Of a stretch of 48,337 bases of DNA, positions 2,431 through 46,211 are shown piece by piece. Made by a program: the position numbers and the translations under genes. The DNA comes from Actinomycetota bacterium. GTDB taxonomy: Bacteria > Actinomycetota > Thermoleophilia > UBA2241. The notes beneath the pieces were generated by a model, which saw only the letters and a list, made by a program, of their open reading frames with translations, ran no database searches and had not been told where the DNA came from. Location: contig PKYG01000091.1 of NCBI GenBank assembly GCA_003132585.1, forward strand, positions 18,893 through 67,229, in the 5' to 3' direction. The stretch's first letter is position 1, and each line of letters begins with the position of its first letter.

Positions 2431-2514
2431 GCCCAACAAAGGCATCAACCCGACGGCGCAAGCGCCGTCCGACCGAGAGCGTATCGGCCGCGGGTTATGC
2501 CTACACCGTTGGGC
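2431..2514 (+). repeat. putative integron attC site (well formed)
   Basis: GCCCAACAAAGGCATCAACCCG ... CGGGTTATGCCTACACCGTTGGGC; perfect RYYYAAC/GTTRRRY boxes, arms pair with extra bases in one arm; internal GACGGCGCAAGCGCCGTC hairpin; 84 bp. Confidence 0.85.
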
Positions 2515-15010: not shown

Positions 15011-15119
15011 TCTACTACTCAGACCGCCTCACACAGCAACCCACGCGTGAAATGATGTCTTACGCAGAAGGGCGTAGGCTTCGGTGCGTGTTGCGCAGTC
15101 CGCATAACCGCTGTTAGCA
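15011..15119 (+). repeat. putative integron attC site, family A copy 3
   Basis: CAGACCGCCTCACACAGCAACCCACGCGTGAAATGATGTCTTACGCAGAAGGGCGTAGGCTTCGGTGCGTGTTGCGCAGTCCGCATAACCGCTGTTAGCA; near-copy of 1451-1565 and 6409-6518. Confidence 0.65.
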
Positions 15120-15262
15120 GGTGAACCGCATTCTGGGGTTCCACGGGCCTACAGCAGCAGACTTGCGACCAACGAATTGTCGGAACAGGCTCGGACCAGC
15201 TGTTCACCCGGTGGGCACTGCTTGGCGCACCGATGGACAATGCTCAGTATTGAGAGGCAGCG

Positions 15263-18200
15263 ATGGGAGCTGACGACACCGCCACACTCTGGAATCAAGA
15301 CAGACAATCTCTCCACGGGTTGATTGGGGAAGTAGACCCCGCCCTTGCCGGTCTTTATCGGCAGGCCATTCTACTCATGGACTCCCAGCCGATGCCGGGC
15401 GACGACAAAGCCCGCCTCTCCCTCGTCAGCCACTGCGTCCGTGAGCTGATGAACAACCTGCCAGACGCCCTTGGCGATGTGAAGGACTTCCCGGCAAACA
15501 GGAGAGGCGACGAAGAGAAGGCGCGCGCTGATCTCATTGCTGCTGTCGAAATGCTCGAGGGCATGCCACGTGATCAGCCGGTTGAAGCCGGAAGTCCTTT
15601 GGACAAGCCGGGCAAGGTGACTGTGCCTGCCGACTTTCTCGACGCCGCGGTGAATTTTGCAGGTGTGTTCAAGGACGGGGAGACTCGCGTAAGACTCAGG
15701 GACTCGGCCGCTCTCTTGGGCTACATTGACCGCTATCATCCAGCCCTGAAGCCGTGGAAAGCTGCCAGGGACTTCTTCATGTCCTTCGCCCACCTGGATC
15801 GGCACAAGTCGGACCGGCCCGGCGGGCACGGTCTTCCCACAGACGAGCGGGTGATGGCACATATCGCGATCATCGAAGCGTCGATGCGCGTCCGTCTCGG
15901 CGCGTTCTTTGACAGTCTGAACGAAGTCAGAGCCCTTGCTGGACAGGCGAACGAGGTCGGCGCGGATGGCATTGAGGTCCCGTCCGATGATGATGTTCGT
16001 GCGATCTTGGCACGTTTGGGCTCGCTTCAGCTGAGGCGCGCGTTCTACGCTCAGTTTGAGAATCCGTATTGGGTCGGGGCACTGGCGAAACAGGACGCTT
16101 TCGGCAACCCACCCGCCACTGAGGTCATGCCGGATGGAACGGTCCGTTCGGACCCATGGCCCGAAATCGGCTATCTCGTTCGCATGGCTCCGGTCGCCAG
16201 CATTGAGGTCGGTGGGGTCTTGGAGAGGATTGCGGACTCCAGTAGTCAATGGGTGCGCCGAGGGATTGCGGAAGCCGCGACTGTGCTTGCGCCCGAAGAC
16301 GCAGCTGGCCTCGTGCCGAAAATGAAGGAATGGCCTGGCGGCGAGCTGGCGAACTTCCGTATTGATCCAAATGACATTACGCAGGTGATTGTCAGGTTGC
16401 TCGGGAGCACGGAGCGCGCCAAAGGTCGGCAGCTTGCGAACGCCTACTTCACACCGCGTCCGCCCTCCGAGACGCCCAAGTTCGGGTCACCTGAGCCGGT
16501 CGCAGGGATTGACTCCTACTGGTATGCGGAGGGCCTTCCGGCAGTCGCAGAGGCGCTCGGCAGCGACCGCGTCCCCGCACTGGCGGGATGGCTGCGCGAG
16601 TACCAGATGCACTCCAACTCATACGCGGGAGAGCGGCACTACGACTTCAGCCACATCTGGCGTTCATCTATCCGCACCTCAGCCGAACACCACGCCCGCG
16701 AGATAGGCGACTCCCTGGTCGACGTACTTCGCTCTGCTCTGTCGGAAGAAACTCAACAGTCCACCGAACCACTTGCTCGGCTCCTCCAGGATGATCAGCC
16801 GCTGTTGCGTCGCCTTGCTCTCGACGTTCTGGCAGAGGCTATTGACCAGGTGGAGGACAAGTCAGACGAAAATACGGCCGATCTGAGCGAACACGAGGCT
16901 GAGCTTGTCGTTCAAGCTGCAGGTGTTCTCACTGACGAGACGTTCACCGAGAGCGAGTATTCGGCGGAGTACCATCCGTTCATCAGAGCGTGTCTAGCTT
17001 GGCGCGCAGTCGTTGACGTGTCGCCGTTCTTCGCCTTCGTCCGTATGGGTCCGTTGGCTCTGCGAGATGAGCGCCGCGAGCGATTCGCCGACGACGGCGA
17101 TACCGCAGCAGATACGGCAGCCCGGATTGATGACTACAGGAAGCGGTGGCAGCACACGATGTTGACCATGGTCGGCGCTGCGGGCCTGCCCGAGGATCTC
17201 CGCGAAATGCTAACCGCGCTCGACGCCGAGTACGGAACCCTCGAGGTCAGCGATGGCGAGATGCATTTCCGTAGCTTCCGTGGGCCAAGCAGTCCAATCG
17301 ACGCTGAAACGATGCAGAATCTCAGCGACGACGACCTGATAGAACACCTACGTTCTTGGCATCCGGAAACAGACAACTGGACGGGCCCCAGCCACAGGGG
17401 GCAAGGGCACGTTCTTGCCGAGGCTCTATCCTCGCAACCCGGTCGTCTGGGTGACCGGATTGAGGATTTGAAGACTCTTCGACCAACCTACATCCGGTCA
17501 GTCATCGGCAGTTGGAGGGAGGCAATCAAGGCAGGCAAGGTCCTGCCTTGGGGCGAGATCGTGCCGTTGTGCGAATGGGTTACTGGTCTTGGTGACGACA
17601 CCACGGTTGCCAGCGAGGGCGACCCATTTGATGACGACTCTGACTATCGGAACTTGAAGTTCGAAGTGCTCCAGCTACTCGAGGCAGGGCTAGCCATCCA
17701 GCCACGTGACGAGGACCCTGGAATCGGGGAGACCAATGCGGGACGCATCGGAGCTATTCTCGCCAGCTTCAGTGACAATCCTGAGCCCACGCCTGAGTAC
17801 GAAGTCAAGTACGGCGGCAGCAACATGGACCCGCTTACACTGTCCATCAACACTGTCCGACCTGGGGCCATCCGCGCACTCATCCGACTTGTTCATCGTT
17901 TCCCAGAGACCGACGCTGCCGCTGATGCGCTAGCCATCATCGACCGGCACATCGCAGGTGTCGACGCGAGTCTGGCCGTTGCGGCAGCCGTGGGGGAGGG
18001 GACCGGTCGACTCTTCGAATCGGCACATTCCTGGATTGAGGAGCGAGTAGCGGCGATCTTCGGCGTCAGGCTTCCGACAACGGAATACCAGCAAGTCGCC
18101 CTCTCGATGGCGCTGGCCATCCATCTCTTTCACACCCCTCTGCTTGAGCTACTGCGCCGGCCAATACTGCTAATGATCGAGGAGATCGGGAGAGTCGAGC

Positions 18201-18865
18201 ACGTTTCGGGCTGGAGGACTCATGATCGCACCTTCAATCAGCTGATAGGCGACTGGATCCTACGCGGAATCATCGATGGCCACCTCAGCTATGACGACCC
18301 GCTTGTACAGAGCTGGTTTGAGCACGCCGACGCCGAGCTTCGGGGGGATGCGCTTGGTCATCTTGCCTGGCTAATGACGAGGTGGGGTTCGGTACCAGAT
18401 GACGTTGTCGAACGGGTGGCAGATCTCTGGGACCGCCGCGTGGCTCATGTGAAGGAACACCGGGAAGATGCGGCCGAATTGGCAGGCGTCTACTGGCTGG
18501 CGCGCTCAGAGAAGTACGAAGTCCAGTGGTGGCTGCCGAGACTGGAGTACGCGTCATCCGTTGTGCCGGACTTCCGCACACGCGGCATGCTTGGCGAGTG
18601 CTTGGCCGGTGCCTCCGCTGTCGACCCGGATACAGCACTCAAGGTAGTTGAGAACGTGCTCGGCGAACGTGGATCTCATAGCTCGAGTATGGAGTACGAC
18701 CTGATGGAGCGTGCCGTGCCGCAGGTGATCGCCTCAGCACTTGACACAGGCGAAGCCGAACTTAAGCAGCGAGCGACAGACCTGATGAATCGGCTCGGAA
18801 GAGCTGGATACATCGACCTTCAAGACCGGGTCGAGCAGCTTCGCAGAGCGTCCGATGAAGAGTAG
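15263..18865 (+). CDS. 1200-aa protein of unknown function, probably largely alpha-helical
   Basis: Single uninterrupted ORF; helix/repeat-like composition; no catalytic motif recognised; located between attC-like sites. Confidence 0.8.
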   Translation: MGADDTATLWNQDRQSLHGLIGEVDPALAGLYRQAILLMDSQPMPGDDKARLSLVSHCVRELMNNLPDALGDVKDFPANRRGDEEKARADLIAAVEMLEGMPRDQPVEAGSPLDKPGKVTVPADFLDAAVNFAGVFKDGETRVRLRDSAALLGYIDRYHPALKPWKAARDFFMSFAHLDRHKSDRPGGHGLPTDERVMAHIAIIEASMRVRLGAFFDSLNEVRALAGQANEVGADGIEVPSDDDVRAILARLGSLQLRRAFYAQFENPYWVGALAKQDAFGNPPATEVMPDGTVRSDPWPEIGYLVRMAPVASIEVGGVLERIADSSSQWVRRGIAEAATVLAPEDAAGLVPKMKEWPGGELANFRIDPNDITQVIVRLLGSTERAKGRQLANAYFTPRPPSETPKFGSPEPVAGIDSYWYAEGLPAVAEALGSDRVPALAGWLREYQMHSNSYAGERHYDFSHIWRSSIRTSAEHHAREIGDSLVDVLRSALSEETQQSTEPLARLLQDDQPLLRRLALDVLAEAIDQVEDKSDENTADLSEHEAELVVQAAGVLTDETFTESEYSAEYHPFIRACLAWRAVVDVSPFFAFVRMGPLALRDERRERFADDGDTAADTAARIDDYRKRWQHTMLTMVGAAGLPEDLREMLTALDAEYGTLEVSDGEMHFRSFRGPSSPIDAETMQNLSDDDLIEHLRSWHPETDNWTGPSHRGQGHVLAEALSSQPGRLGDRIEDLKTLRPTYIRSVIGSWREAIKAGKVLPWGEIVPLCEWVTGLGDDTTVASEGDPFDDDSDYRNLKFEVLQLLEAGLAIQPRDEDPGIGETNAGRIGAILASFSDNPEPTPEYEVKYGGSNMDPLTLSINTVRPGAIRALIRLVHRFPETDAAADALAIIDRHIAGVDASLAVAAAVGEGTGRLFESAHSWIEERVAAIFGVRLPTTEYQQVALSMALAIHLFHTPLLELLRRPILLMIEEIGRVEHVSGWRTHDRTFNQLIGDWILRGIIDGHLSYDDPLVQSWFEHADAELRGDALGHLAWLMTRWGSVPDDVVERVADLWDRRVAHVKEHREDAAELAGVYWLARSEKYEVQWWLPRLEYASSVVPDFRTRGMLGECLAGASAVDPDTALKVVENVLGERGSHSSSMEYDLMERAVPQVIASALDTGEAELKQRATDLMNRLGRAGYIDLQDRVEQLRRASDEE

Positions 18866-19036
18866 CGACGGCAGCTGCAATGTCGCGGGAGCGGCCTGGC
18901 TGATGTGCGTCCCGACGGGAGGTCTCGCATTCTTCGTGACGACTGTTATCGCCCCCATTTGCCAGAAGCCTACTCGGGCGTCACTGCCTTGGATCGGTCA
19001 TGGATGCCGTCACGGTTGGCAAAGCATGTCAGTCCC

Positions 19037-19096
19037 TGCTAACAAACGGATCAACCTGGCTCGCTTCGCTCGCAGGTTATCCGTCAGACGTTCGCC
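19037..19096 (+). repeat. putative integron attC site (compact 60 bp)
   Basis: TGCTAACAAACGGATCAACCTGGCTCGCTTCGCTCGCAGGTTATCCGTCAGACGTTCGCC; AAACGGAT-CAACCTG pairs CAGGTT-ATCCGTCAGACGTT with offset extrahelical bases, GCTCGC-TTCG-CTCGC tip. Confidence 0.72.
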
Positions 19097-19132: not shown

Positions 19133-22100
19133 TCACGCCTTCTCGATGCTTGATTCGACGATTGCGATATCGTCGTCGGTGAGACCGTACGCAGCATAGA
19201 CAGCAACGTCTACGCGAGCCCGCAGCATCGTCGCCTCTCTCTCCCAGCGTCGTTGATCTTCCGAAACACGACACAGCTGGACTTGCTTCTTGGCTTCCTG
19301 CAGCGCAGTCACTGACTCGGTGATGTCATCGTGGATTCGTCTCTCATGTGCGTTGTTGGGACTCAGCACGCGAACCGGCCGTCTCTCGATGTACTGCTTG
19401 TTCGCGGCATAGTAGCCGCCTCGGAAGCTGGTTGAGATGCGCTTGAGGTAGAAGTCGAGTGCTCGATTGTTCAGAAGCGCACAGAGATACGCCATCGACC
19501 CGAAGGAGGGGTCGACGGTGAGGCCGTAGCCTCCCGTGGTCACGTTGATGAAGTAGAAGTTGTCGGTCAAATCGCAGTAGGCGGCTAGGTCAGTGACCAT
19601 ATACGGGACAAGCAGTTTAGGCTGCTCCCAGCACCCGAGGTTCTGGGTGCGACCGAACCGATACCACGACGCATCTCTGAACCCACCGTGCTCGCGGGCT
19701 TCGAGTTCGCAACGATTGAGCTCCAGATAGGCACGGGCAAGTGGATAGCGATCCTGCAGCGCCTGTCCGGTAAGAAGATGCGCATCGGTGCCCACGAGGT
19801 CGTACGGAAACAGAACCTTCGCCGTCGCGTGCGCCCAGTATTGGCCAATCGAGCCGCTACGGACGACGTCTTTCAAGGCCGCCGACTCAAGCGTTACCCA
19901 CCTGCCAATCGACTTCGAGAACACGTCCGTCAGCCCGCTCTCTTGAGACAGGTTATGCTCCTTAAACACGAAGACCGGATCCGCGCTGGTCTGTTGCCCA
20001 ACGAACATGCCCGTAACAACATCGCGCAAGCGGACCGGCATGGTATCGAGCCGCTCGAACAAGCTCGCGCACCGTCCAACAACGAAAGCCCAGTCCGAAC
20101 TCCCATAGGAATCGGCCGGCAGCTCGTCGACAATCGGCTTCTCACCATTGCGCCAAGCTGGAATATCGTCAACCGGCACAAAGGCGAAGCGTGGTGAACG
20201 TGCCTTGCTGAGAAGAAGGAGGCACGTGTACGTCGAAGCGTTGGTGAAGACCTGGCTGTGGCCAAAGTGAACGACCCGATCTAGGTGCCCGCCCTTGGCG
20301 AGTAGGCCGCGCAACGGCTCCCCGTACTGTGCGTTGAAGAACTTGTGCGGCAGGATGTAGCCAAGGCGGCCGGCCTCGTTGAGCAGAGACAGGCCCCGCT
20401 CGACGAACACCACGTAGATGTCGTAGTTGCCCTTGCTCGCCGCGACGTATCGCTTCTTGTAGAACTCAACTTCGCGCGGCGCGAACTCCTTCAGGTTCTG
20501 GATGCGGATATACGGCGGATTCCCGATCACTGCGTCGAACCCGCGCTGCTCCTCCGGCACCGCCTTCCCCTGAATCTGCGGGAACTCCGCCTCCCAGTCG
20601 AAGACGTTGATGCGGTAGCGCTCCTCGTCGTCGAGGCCGGTGAGACCGAGCTGCTGATCGTCGTAGAAGTCCGGGCCGATCAGCGAATTGCCGCACTTGA
20701 TGTTGGCGGCCAGGTCGGGCAGGGCGCGCTCGTGCAAGAAGCTGAGCTGGGCGTCGATTGTCTCCGACGTCTCGCCCTCGAGCACCTTGAGCAGCAGGCT
20801 CAGTTTGGTCGTCTCCACGGCCTGGGAGTCGATGTCGACGCCGTAGATGTTGTTCAGCAGTATCCGCTTCTTTTCGGCCGTGGTGAGCTGCCACTCGCCG
20901 GCGCGGCCCTGCACGATCGGCTTGTTCTTCTTGTCGAGCGCGTGCTCCACGTACCAGTCGCGGTGCCAGTCGAGCAGGCACTGGTAGGCGCCGATGAGGA
21001 ACGAGCCCGAGCCGCAGGCGGGATCGAGGATGCGGAGGTCGGCCGCCTGCTTGGGCGCAAGCCCCTCGAGCAGGCGGCCCACTGTGTTCTTGACGATGTA
21101 GTCGACGATGTAGGTCGGCGTGTAGTACACGCCGCCGGCCTTCTTGACCTCGGGCTTGTCCTCGACCTTGGCCTGGTGCCCCGTCGTGAGGCGGATCACC
21201 TTGCCGAGGAACTGCTCGTAGACCTGCCCCAGGATGTCGGCGGGCAGCACGCTGAACTCGTACGGGCTCTCCGGGTAGTACAGCCGCTTGAGGATCTCCT
21301 TGAGCACCCTGTCGTCGATCACCAGATCGGGGGTGAGCGTGTCGGGCGCGTCCGCGCGCCCCCTCTCTTGCTCGAAGTGGAAGAGGCCGGAGTTGTAACG
21401 ATGGTCGGCCTCGAAGAACAGGGTTCTCAGCCGCTCCCACACGTTCTGGCCGTTCACCAGACCCTGCAGCCGCCCGTAGGGTTCGATCAGCCGGTCCTCG
21501 CAGATGCGCAGGAAGATGATGCGGTCGATCGTCGCCTGCACGGCGTAGTTGAGCTCGCGCGTGCTCAGCGAGCGGTTGCGCAGCGCGATGTTGCGCGCGA
21601 GCTCGTCGCGCCAGCTCTCGATCTCCTTGAGAAAGGCGGTGTCGACCTCGGCCGTGCCCTTCTTCGCCTTGGTCGACTCGGCGTACTGGTCGAACGAGCC
21701 CTTGTAGATCGCGTCCTTGCTGAAGATCGACGCGATCTCGTCCCAGCGGTGCTCGTACTCGTCGAAGGTCGCGTACATGATGCGTGCGACCGGCGATTTG
21801 TCGGTGTTCGCCGGTCGCACGCGGCAGTCGTAAACGACGAACTCCTGGAAGTCGGTGACGATGCTCAGCGGCAGCTTGGCCGACCAGGCGTAGCGGCGAA
21901 GCTGGTAGGCCGGGCTGGGGTCGTCCTTGAGGTTGACCGCGGGCTTCTTCGCCTCGACAAAGAACTTGCGCGCGCCTCCTACTCTGAACGAGTAGTCCGG
22001 CGCCCGGCTGTCGATGCCCACCTTGATCGCGTCTTCGTGCACCACGTCGCGGTACTGCGGCGCGTTGCCGGCGGAGTTGTCGACGTCCCAGCTCAGCGCC

Positions 22101-22222
22101 TTGAAGAACGGGTCGATGAACTCGATGCGCACCTGGGTCTCGTTGTAGGCGGGGTTGAGATAGGTGGTGAAGTTGTGCCTGAAGCGCTCAACGAGCTCGA
22201 CAACCGCATCGGGTGCGCCCAC
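19133..22222 (-). CDS. type IIG (Eco57I-like) fused restriction endonuclease/N6-adenine methyltransferase
   Basis: N-terminal PD-(D/E)xK: APDYSFRVGGARKFFVEAKKP; MTase motif I DPACGSGSFLIGAYQ; motif IV GNPPYIRIQ; C-terminal target-recognition-like region. Confidence 0.9.
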   Translation of the reverse strand: MGAPDAVVELVERFRHNFTTYLNPAYNETQVRIEFIDPFFKALSWDVDNSAGNAPQYRDVVHEDAIKVGIDSRAPDYSFRVGGARKFFVEAKKPAVNLKDDPSPAYQLRRYAWSAKLPLSIVTDFQEFVVYDCRVRPANTDKSPVARIMYATFDEYEHRWDEIASIFSKDAIYKGSFDQYAESTKAKKGTAEVDTAFLKEIESWRDELARNIALRNRSLSTRELNYAVQATIDRIIFLRICEDRLIEPYGRLQGLVNGQNVWERLRTLFFEADHRYNSGLFHFEQERGRADAPDTLTPDLVIDDRVLKEILKRLYYPESPYEFSVLPADILGQVYEQFLGKVIRLTTGHQAKVEDKPEVKKAGGVYYTPTYIVDYIVKNTVGRLLEGLAPKQAADLRILDPACGSGSFLIGAYQCLLDWHRDWYVEHALDKKNKPIVQGRAGEWQLTTAEKKRILLNNIYGVDIDSQAVETTKLSLLLKVLEGETSETIDAQLSFLHERALPDLAANIKCGNSLIGPDFYDDQQLGLTGLDDEERYRINVFDWEAEFPQIQGKAVPEEQRGFDAVIGNPPYIRIQNLKEFAPREVEFYKKRYVAASKGNYDIYVVFVERGLSLLNEAGRLGYILPHKFFNAQYGEPLRGLLAKGGHLDRVVHFGHSQVFTNASTYTCLLLLSKARSPRFAFVPVDDIPAWRNGEKPIVDELPADSYGSSDWAFVVGRCASLFERLDTMPVRLRDVVTGMFVGQQTSADPVFVFKEHNLSQESGLTDVFSKSIGRWVTLESAALKDVVRSGSIGQYWAHATAKVLFPYDLVGTDAHLLTGQALQDRYPLARAYLELNRCELEAREHGGFRDASWYRFGRTQNLGCWEQPKLLVPYMVTDLAAYCDLTDNFYFINVTTGGYGLTVDPSFGSMAYLCALLNNRALDFYLKRISTSFRGGYYAANKQYIERRPVRVLSPNNAHERRIHDDITESVTALQEAKKQVQLCRVSEDQRRWEREATMLRARVDVAVYAAYGLTDDDIAIVESSIEKA

Positions 22223-27984: not shown

Positions 27985-28018
27985 CCAGAAAGCACGAAGA
28001 CCGGCCGACGGGCCGGTC
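27985..28018 (-). terminator. terminator-like hairpin inside the TolB paralog 2 leader
   Basis: Minus strand GACCGGCC-CGTC-GGCCGGTC followed by TTCGTGCTTTCT; upstream of start codon (attenuator position). Confidence 0.6.
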
Positions 28019-28090
28019 TCACTAGTGGCTCCCCGCCGGACTGCGGTGGCCGCAGCGGTACGTCCGGCGGATCACAGCCTCCCGTGTGCA

Positions 28091-28160
28091 GTGCTGCACC
28101 TATCAGGAGTCTCGTACGACGATTGTATATCCCGACGCGGTGACGAGGTCAAGCGTACGG
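28091..28160 (-). promoter_or_regulatory. repeated promoter/5'-leader element, copy 1
   Basis: Minus strand TTGACC (28147-28152), 17 bp, TATACA (28124-28129), then TACGAGACTCCTGATAGGTGCAG. Confidence 0.7.
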
Positions 28161-31981: not shown

Positions 31982-32001
31982 GACCGGCCCGCGGGCCGGT
32001 C
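31982..32001 (-). terminator. terminator-like hairpin in second copy of structured leader
   Basis: Minus strand GACCGGCCC-GC-GGGCCGGTC then TTCGTGCTTTCT. Confidence 0.55.
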
Positions 32002-32073
32002 TCACCAATGGCTCCCCGCCGGATGATGGTGGCCGCGACGTGCCTCCGGCGGATCAGAGCTTCCCGTATAGAG

Positions 32074-32290: not shown

Positions 32291-32366
32291 TGGTGGACCG
32301 CAGGGGAGTCGAACCCCTGACCTCCGCCGTGCAAAGGCGGCGCTCTCCCATCTGAGCTAGCGGCCC
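32291..32366 (-). tRNA. tRNA-Ala (anticodon UGC), CCA encoded
   Basis: Minus strand GGGCCGCTAGCTCAGATGGGAGAGCGCCGCCTTTGCACGGCGGAGGTCAGGGGTTCGACTCCCCTGCGGTCCACCA; full cloverleaf. Confidence 0.97.
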
Positions 32367-46161: not shown

Positions 46162-46211
46162 CCCGAACGATAGCACGGCGCCGGCGCGCCGACGCCGTGC
46201 TATCGTTCGGG
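46162..46211. promoter_or_regulatory. 19-bp perfect inverted repeat between divergent genes
   Basis: CCCGAACGATAGCACGGCG-N12-CGCCGTGCTATCGTTCGGG. Confidence 0.65.

What the first reader, a model, noticed from the sequence alone, without database searches (positions are those of the whole stretch)
15263..18865. 1200-aa uncharacterised protein as an outsized putative cassette (candidate defence gene)
Seen: one uninterrupted 3.6-kb ORF with helix/repeat-like composition, no recognised catalytic motif, bracketed by attC-like sites at 15011-15119 and 19037-19096, and facing a type IIG restriction-methylase. Established: integron arrays and their neighbourhoods carry toxin-antitoxin and anti-phage genes; cassettes are usually about 1 kb or less. 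Inference: unusually large cassette (~4 kb) encoding a possible novel defence effector or scaffold. This is the most likely undescribed system in the window.
Basis: partly seen in the sequence, partly recalled or inferred. Interest (0 to 1): 0.8.

Follow-up and report, generated by a model that had tools for sequence, protein, structure and literature searches.

The report
Dsr1-like defence protein in integron cassette
A 1200-residue bacterial protein, carried on an unusually long mobile gene cassette, has the same long sensor-like arm as the known anti-phage protein Dsr1, but an unfamiliar helical domain sits where Dsr1 has its NAD-destroying head, so it is probably a phage-defence protein with a new kind of warhead.

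Summary
The ORF 15263-18865 (+, 1200 aa) is real. Residues ~241-1200 form a HEAT solenoid homologous to the whole post-SIR2 part of the anti-phage protein Dsr1: PADLOC Dsr1 matches 22 of 23 family members, and profile-profile comparison with SIR2-/TIR-HEAT proteins gives E 9e-102. The SIR2 head is absent. Residues ~1-230 are a helical domain of no known family with invariant H57, R60, E61, W165 and H177. Elsewhere this domain is fused to the HEAT arm or encoded just upstream, exactly as SIR2 is, so it probably fills the effector slot. Relatives are patchy across more than 12 phyla. 14 of 28 loci carry restriction-modification genes nearby, several inside hsdRMS operons; for one methylase family 8 loci were seen against 0.25 expected. 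Here the neighbour is a convergent type IIG enzyme. The cassette idea largely holds: GTTAGCA at 15113, unique on that strand, exactly complements R'' TGCTAAC of a hairpin attC at 19037, outlining a lone cassette 15114-19090 (3977 bp) in a genome with a true integron integrase. The left 'attC' is only a core site. Most likely: a Dsr1-like abortive-infection sensor with a swapped, chemically unidentified effector. HEPN membership was tested and not met. Defence itself is untested.

The parts
15263..18865 (+). 1200-aa gene: helical N-terminal domain plus Dsr1-type HEAT region
   Evidence: ORF; relatives; models; PADLOC Dsr1
15263..15952 (+). N-terminal helical domain (~residues 1-230), candidate effector; H57 (15431-15433), R60/E61 (15440-15445), W165 and H177 (15791-15793) invariant in the 23-sequence alignment
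   Evidence: Alignments; AF2 pLDDT 90.6 / pTM 0.86 on the family representative L028; no significant fold or family match; stand-alone gene in split loci L077, L078, L081
15983..18862 (+). Dsr1-type HEAT solenoid (~residues 241-1200), candidate sensor arm
   Evidence: A4 vs SIR2/TIR-HEAT proteins: hhalign probability 100, E 8.6e-102, 919 columns; L028 matches Dsr1 profile 304-1214 of 1227; Foldseek HEAT proteins
15113..15119 (+). Left core site G|TTAGCA, probable 5' boundary of the cassette (cassette begins at 15114)
   Evidence: Unique on the + strand of the window; exact complement of R'' at 19037
19037..19096 (+). attC hairpin at the 3' end: R'' TGCTAAC, arms ACGGAT(C)AACCTG / CAGGTTATCCGT with one extra-helical base, cleavage G|TT at 19090
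   Evidence: Folds; shuffled-window null
15114..19090 (+). Inferred lone integron cassette, 3977 bp, inserted at a GTT secondary site
   Evidence: genome encodes an IntI (TIGR02249, 488 bits) on another contig
19133..22222 (-). Type IIG restriction-methylase, convergent neighbour outside the cassette
   Evidence: PADLOC REase_MTase_IIG 2.6e-251; Pfam Eco57I, HSDR_N, TaqI_C

Best explanation
The gene encodes a Dsr1-like innate-immunity protein. Its ~950-residue HEAT arm holds the protein silent and senses infection, by binding a phage protein or by monitoring the integrity of a neighbouring restriction-modification complex. Binding switches on the N-terminal helical domain, which replaces the SIR2 NADase of Dsr1 and is a cell-stopping enzyme whose chemistry is not known; invariant H57, R60, E61 and H177 are candidate active-site residues. 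The gene travels as a single long integron cassette and has landed beside a type IIG restriction-methylase. Shown here: gene, HEAT arm, homology to Dsr1, absence of SIR2, domain swapping and splitting, restriction-modification association of the wider family, attC with matching core. Inferred: sensing, effector activity, abortive infection, mobility of this copy.
For: C-terminal homology to the whole post-SIR2 part of Dsr1. The same arm is joined to SIR2 (L022/L087, L023/L088, L082, L083), TIR (L021/L086) and STAND ATPases (L006, L007), and is split with SIR2 encoded just upstream (L048, L084, L090, L091). The N-terminal domain of this type is likewise fused or a separate overlapping upstream gene (L077, L078, L081). 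Invariant polar residues. Restriction-modification genes in 14 of 28 own-type loci vs 0 of 13 other loci (Fisher p 0.0013); PF02384 methylases in 8 loci vs 0.25 expected, P 2.7e-11. Embedded in hsd operons: 4-bp overlap with an hsdS-like gene in L043, 2-bp gap after hsdS in L028, with hsdRMS in L046, L036, L080. Patchy: 0 of 14 same-family genomes, 3 of 98 relatives besides this one; one type I-linked clade spans six phyla.
Against: No experiment and no catalytic motif of known type. The N-terminal domain matches no solved or viral fold at E<0.001. H57 is lost in L080 and L089. In the window the restriction gene is convergent, outside the cassette, and of another type than most relatives' partners; the nearest relative (L025, 34%) has only McrBC and a helicase nearby. 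The HEAT arm is not purely defensive: it is fused to a DUF255 thioredoxin-like protein in housekeeping surroundings (L092-L095).
Confidence: 0.55

Rival explanations
1. The protein is a guard of restriction-modification: it binds the restriction-methylase complex, stays silent while that is intact, and fires when a phage anti-restriction protein disables it, as PrrC does for EcoprrI.
For: Type I-linked members form one clade across six phyla; genes lie inside hsdRMS operons. PrrC precedent: PMC3710099.
Against: Half of the loci have no restriction system in reach (some contigs are short). Partners differ (type I, IIG, DrmMI-like, type II), so one physical partner is unlikely. In the window the partner is convergent and outside the cassette. 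The closest relative lacks a type I or IIG partner.
Confidence: 0.3
2. The N-terminal domain is a diverged HEPN ribonuclease.
For: HEPN structures (8xdj, 6m6u, 8yuf, 2q00) are among the closest solved folds (TM by target 0.56-0.62, probability 0.63-0.89). Conserved R and H residues, and an E-x3-R in many members, recall the layout described in PMC3710099.
Against: No E below 0.5. No Rx4-6H motif. hhalign against PF05168 HEPN gives 0.2% probability (positive control 99.9%) and against DUF4145 0.1%.
Confidence: 0.25
3. The N-terminal domain is not an enzyme but an adaptor that docks the HEAT arm to other proteins; the protein is an accessory or regulatory subunit.
For: All-helical, no known catalytic motif; long HEAT arms are protein-binding; many different neighbouring systems.
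Against: It occupies exactly the slot of SIR2 and TIR enzymes and keeps invariant H, R, E and H residues.
Confidence: 0.25
4. Not a cassette: the attC hairpin and the matching core are coincidental, and the gene arrived by other means.
For: R'' and R' deviate from consensus in their outer bases; 1 of 40 shuffled windows gives an equal pair; the left flank has no attC; the integrase is on another contig.
Against: The pair brackets exactly one gene in the correct orientation; the core is unique on its strand; circularised attC z -4.5; no copy in 14 same-family genomes.
Confidence: 0.25

Closest known systems
Dsr1 (defence-associated sirtuin 1; PADLOC PDLC04166)
   Same: Whole C-terminal HEAT region: L028 residues 175-1123 align to Dsr1 profile 304-1214 of 1227; similar total length
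   Different: No SIR2 domain; a ~230-residue helical domain of no known family takes its place
TIR-HEAT and split SIR2 + HEAT systems seen here (L086, L084, L090, L091, L048)
   Same: Same HEAT arm; L086 lies next to a IIG enzyme related to the window's (337 bits)
   Different: NADase-type effector domains
DSR2 (structures in PMC11263360)
   Same: General plan: N-terminal effector plus long helical HEAT arm that binds phage tail-tube protein
   Different: SIR2 effector; no sequence match of this family to any PDB chain was found
PrrC anticodon nuclease of EcoprrI
   Same: Some members sit inside a type I restriction operon, suggesting a second line of defence
   Different: No ABC ATPase; HEPN membership not shown; the window copy is not in such an operon
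Integron gene cassettes
   Same: attC with hairpin and extra-helical base, core G|TT, one gene in the usual orientation
   Different: 3977 bp, about four times the usual size; no array beside it

Membership tests
Dsr1 | C-terminal Dsr1 helical region | tested here: met
   22 of 23 members match PDLC04166 (best 2.8e-58; window 9.4e-8); profile range 304-1214/1227 for L028
Dsr1 | N-terminal SIR2 domain | tested here: not met
   No SIR2 match in Pfam, NCBIfam or PADLOC; all-helical N-terminus
Dsr1 | NAD+ depletion / phage protection | not testable with these tools
   Needs experiment
HEPN superfamily | Rx4-6H motif | tested here: not met
   Alignment of 23 N-termini: no conserved R before H177
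HEPN superfamily | Profile or fold similarity | tested here: not met
   hhalign probability 0.2% (PF05168) and 0.1% (DUF4145), positive control 99.9%; Foldseek HEPN hits only at E>0.5
PrrC-type restriction guard | Gene inside an hsd operon | tested here: inconclusive
   Met in L028, L036, L043, L046, L080; not in the window
PrrC-type restriction guard | ABC ATPase + HEPN anticodon nuclease | tested here: not met
   No Pfam match
STAND / Avs | STAND NTPase core | tested here: not met
   No NTPase match; only some distant relatives (L006, L007) have one
Integron cassette | attC 3' of the gene with R''/R', L''/L' arms and extra-helical base | tested here: met
   19037-19096, circularised z -4.5; outer bases of R''/R' off consensus
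Integron cassette | 5' boundary core complementary to R'' | tested here: met
   GTTAGCA at 15113, unique on the strand
Integron cassette | Integron integrase in the genome | tested here: met
   G000:C61:27464-28405, 488 bits vs cut-off 265
Integron cassette | Excision by IntI / empty site | not tested
   No same-genus genome among the relatives listed; experiment needed

The most novel reading that the evidence does not exclude
The N-terminal domain founds a new class of immune effector (a helical H/R/E/H enzyme) that is interchangeable with SIR2 and TIR on Dsr1-type sensor arms, used widely as a back-up to restriction-modification and moved between hosts, here as a giant integron cassette.
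Probability: 0.35. Interest if true: 0.75.

Novelty: new variant of a known kind. Interest (0 to 1): 0.55.

Why it matters
It separates the Dsr1 sensor arm from its sirtuin head. The same arm carries SIR2, TIR, a STAND ATPase or this new domain, so arms and warheads can be exchanged and tested in the laboratory. PADLOC's Dsr1 profile matches these SIR2-less proteins strongly, so annotation by that profile alone could call them sirtuins. The repeated position inside type I restriction operons makes a back-up role for restriction directly testable, and a 4-kb defence cassette widens what integrons are thought to carry.

Tried and rejected
HEPN: suggested by the helical bundle and weak Foldseek hits; rejected as a membership by hhalign with a positive control (the first two used partly misframed HEPN sequences and were redone). 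Viral fold library: nothing significant. Solved-structure sequence search with single sequence and profile: nothing. PHROGs, phage records and viral contigs: no relatives, so not phage-borne in these collections. First genome-contig scan with the single protein found nothing; the alignment found 22 loci. Left attC at 15011-15119: rejected as a folded attC. A simple R''/R' scanner missed the right attC because its linear R' belongs to the target site. Housekeeping HEAT protein: considered because of DUF255-HEAT fusions, but those lack the N-terminal domain of this type. No sigma-70-like promoter was found upstream of the gene, which says little in this group.

Full report
The observation. The window lies in a 3.0-Mb draft genome (contig C85). 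The ORF at 15263-18865 is intact and has full-length relatives, so it is a gene. Pfam and NCBIfam give no family above cut-off. PADLOC gives Dsr1 at 9.4e-8 over residues 660-809. The neighbour at 19133-22222 is a type IIG restriction-methylase (2.6e-251), convergent with the ORF.

Relatives. A search of related genomes found three others (L002-L004), none among the 14 of the same family. An alignment-based scan of 85,462 species genomes through the motif L[VI]xH[LC]xRE found 22 loci in Actinomycetota, Bacillota, Pseudomonadota, Bipolaricaulota, Acidobacteriota, Myxococcota, Patescibacteria, Planctomycetota, Hydrogenedentota, Chloroflexota, Gemmatimonadota, Cyanobacteria, Aminicenantota and others. 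The nearest is Arthrobacter globiformis, 34% identical. A later search of one further phylum found 12 genomes of 297 with relatives of some kind. No phage or viral-contig relatives were found.

The C-terminal arm. Twenty-two of 23 members match PADLOC Dsr1, best 2.8e-58. For L028 the match covers Dsr1 profile positions 304-1214 of 1227, that is, everything after the SIR2 domain. hhalign of the family with SIR2-HEAT and TIR-HEAT proteins aligns 919 columns from about window residue 216 to the end at E 8.6e-102. The AlphaFold2 model (pLDDT 79.6) is a HEAT solenoid by Foldseek.

The N-terminal slot. Across loci the same arm is preceded by SIR2 (L022/L087, L023/L088, L082, L083), TIR (L021/L086), STAND ATPases (L006, L007) or the domain seen here. 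SIR2 is also found as a separate gene just upstream of the arm (L048, L084, L090, L091), and so is the present domain (L077, L078, L081). This parallel is the main argument that the domain is an effector; it is inference. The domain of L028 folds confidently (pLDDT 90.6, pTM 0.86) as a helical bundle. In the 23-sequence alignment five residues are invariant (window H57, R60, E61, W165, H177); the split and more divergent copies keep R60, a D or E at 61, and H177, while H57 varies. No fold match reaches E 0.001. HEPN proteins are among the weak hits, but profile comparison does not support HEPN and the Rx4-6H motif is missing.

Context. Restriction-modification genes lie in 14 of 28 loci with this architecture (window, L026, L027, L028, L030, L031, L034, L036, L037, L042, L043, L046, L080, L085) and in none of 13 other loci searched the same way (Fisher p 0.0013). 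The comparison loci are a convenience set, the search seeds were taken partly from these same loci, and several own-type contigs are short. An independent count used Pfam N6_Mtase: 86 hits in 103.6 Mb of 22 genomes predict 0.25 loci with a neighbouring hit; 8 were seen, P 2.7e-11. The gene overlaps the end of an upstream hsdS-like gene by 4 bp in L043, follows hsdS by 2 bp in L028, and lies with hsdRMS in L046, L036 and L080. A tree shows one type I-linked clade spanning six phyla, one clade linked to DrmMI-like methylases, and scattered others; the label needs nine changes and is not significantly clustered beyond shuffles. The window protein pairs with L025 on a long branch outside those clades, so the guard model is weaker for it than for the type I clade. 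Neighbours elsewhere include PtuA-like and GajA/OLD-like ATPases.

The cassette. The genome has an integron integrase (488 bits, cut-off 265) on contig C61 and an attC-like site in that neighbourhood. At the 3' side of the gene, 19037-19096 folds as an attC with a single extra-helical base. Its linear R' (GTTCGCC) does not complement R'' (TGCTAAC), but GTTAGCA at 15113, unique on the + strand, does so exactly. That is what a circular cassette inserted at a secondary G|TT site leaves: first bases TTAGCA on the left, target TTCGCC on the right. The circularised attC has z -4.5 (0 of 1000 shuffles). A window-wide search for such pairs is matched by 1 of 40 shuffled windows, so the statistical support is moderate and the anatomy carries the rest. 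The left site has no attC of its own.

Mechanism. By homology to Dsr1, and by the plan of DSR2, whose helical arm binds phage tail-tube protein and releases the SIR2 head (PMC11263360), the HEAT arm is most likely the sensor and the N-terminal domain the effector. The shown steps are homology, architecture, conservation, context and the cassette ends. The inferred steps are sensing, catalysis, abortive outcome and mobility of this copy. One review notes that Dsr1 itself inhibits phage without killing the cell (PMC10952713), so abortive infection should not be taken as certain. A guard role over restriction-modification, as for PrrC (PMC3710099), is attractive for the type I clade and open for the window protein.

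Novelty. The arm is known; the head is not in any library searched. Literature searches for the combination found no description, but the library holds open-licence papers only, so this is weak evidence of absence.

Noticed in passing
window 2431-2514: A second attC-like palindrome (GCCCAAC...GTTGGGC, 84 bp) with possible partner cores at 881 and 1559; suggests another cassette near the left end of the window.
   Followed up: partly
window 28002-28091 and 31985-32073 (-): Two c-di-GMP-II-GAG riboswitches about 4 kb apart on the same strand, with a tRNA-Ala at 32291-32366.
   Followed up: no
window 46162-46211: Near-perfect 50-bp inverted repeat (CCCGAACGATAGCACGGCG...), a strong hairpin of unknown role.
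   Followed up: no
L086 1021-7999: TIR-HEAT protein preceded by a stand-alone SIR2 gene and a type IIG enzyme related to the window's (337 bits): a possible three-gene defence unit.
   Followed up: partly
L093 6887-11740, L094 7203-11969, L012-L017: The Dsr1-type HEAT arm fused to a DUF255 thioredoxin-like (YyaL/SSP411-type) protein in several related Actinomycetota genomes, in housekeeping surroundings such as a biotin operon; unexplained.
   Followed up: partly
L006, L007, L047, L049, L050: Haloarchaeal plasmids carry large proteins with the same HEAT arm, in L006 and L007 behind a STAND-type ATPase: undescribed Avs-like candidates.
   Followed up: partly
L041 8942-11116: A relative with an extra N-terminal part containing a helix-turn-helix domain before the usual N-terminal domain.
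   Followed up: no
G000:C61:27464-28405 (L051, L060): Genuine integron integrase in this genome with a 101-bp attC about 11 kb away; the array was not mapped.
   Followed up: partly
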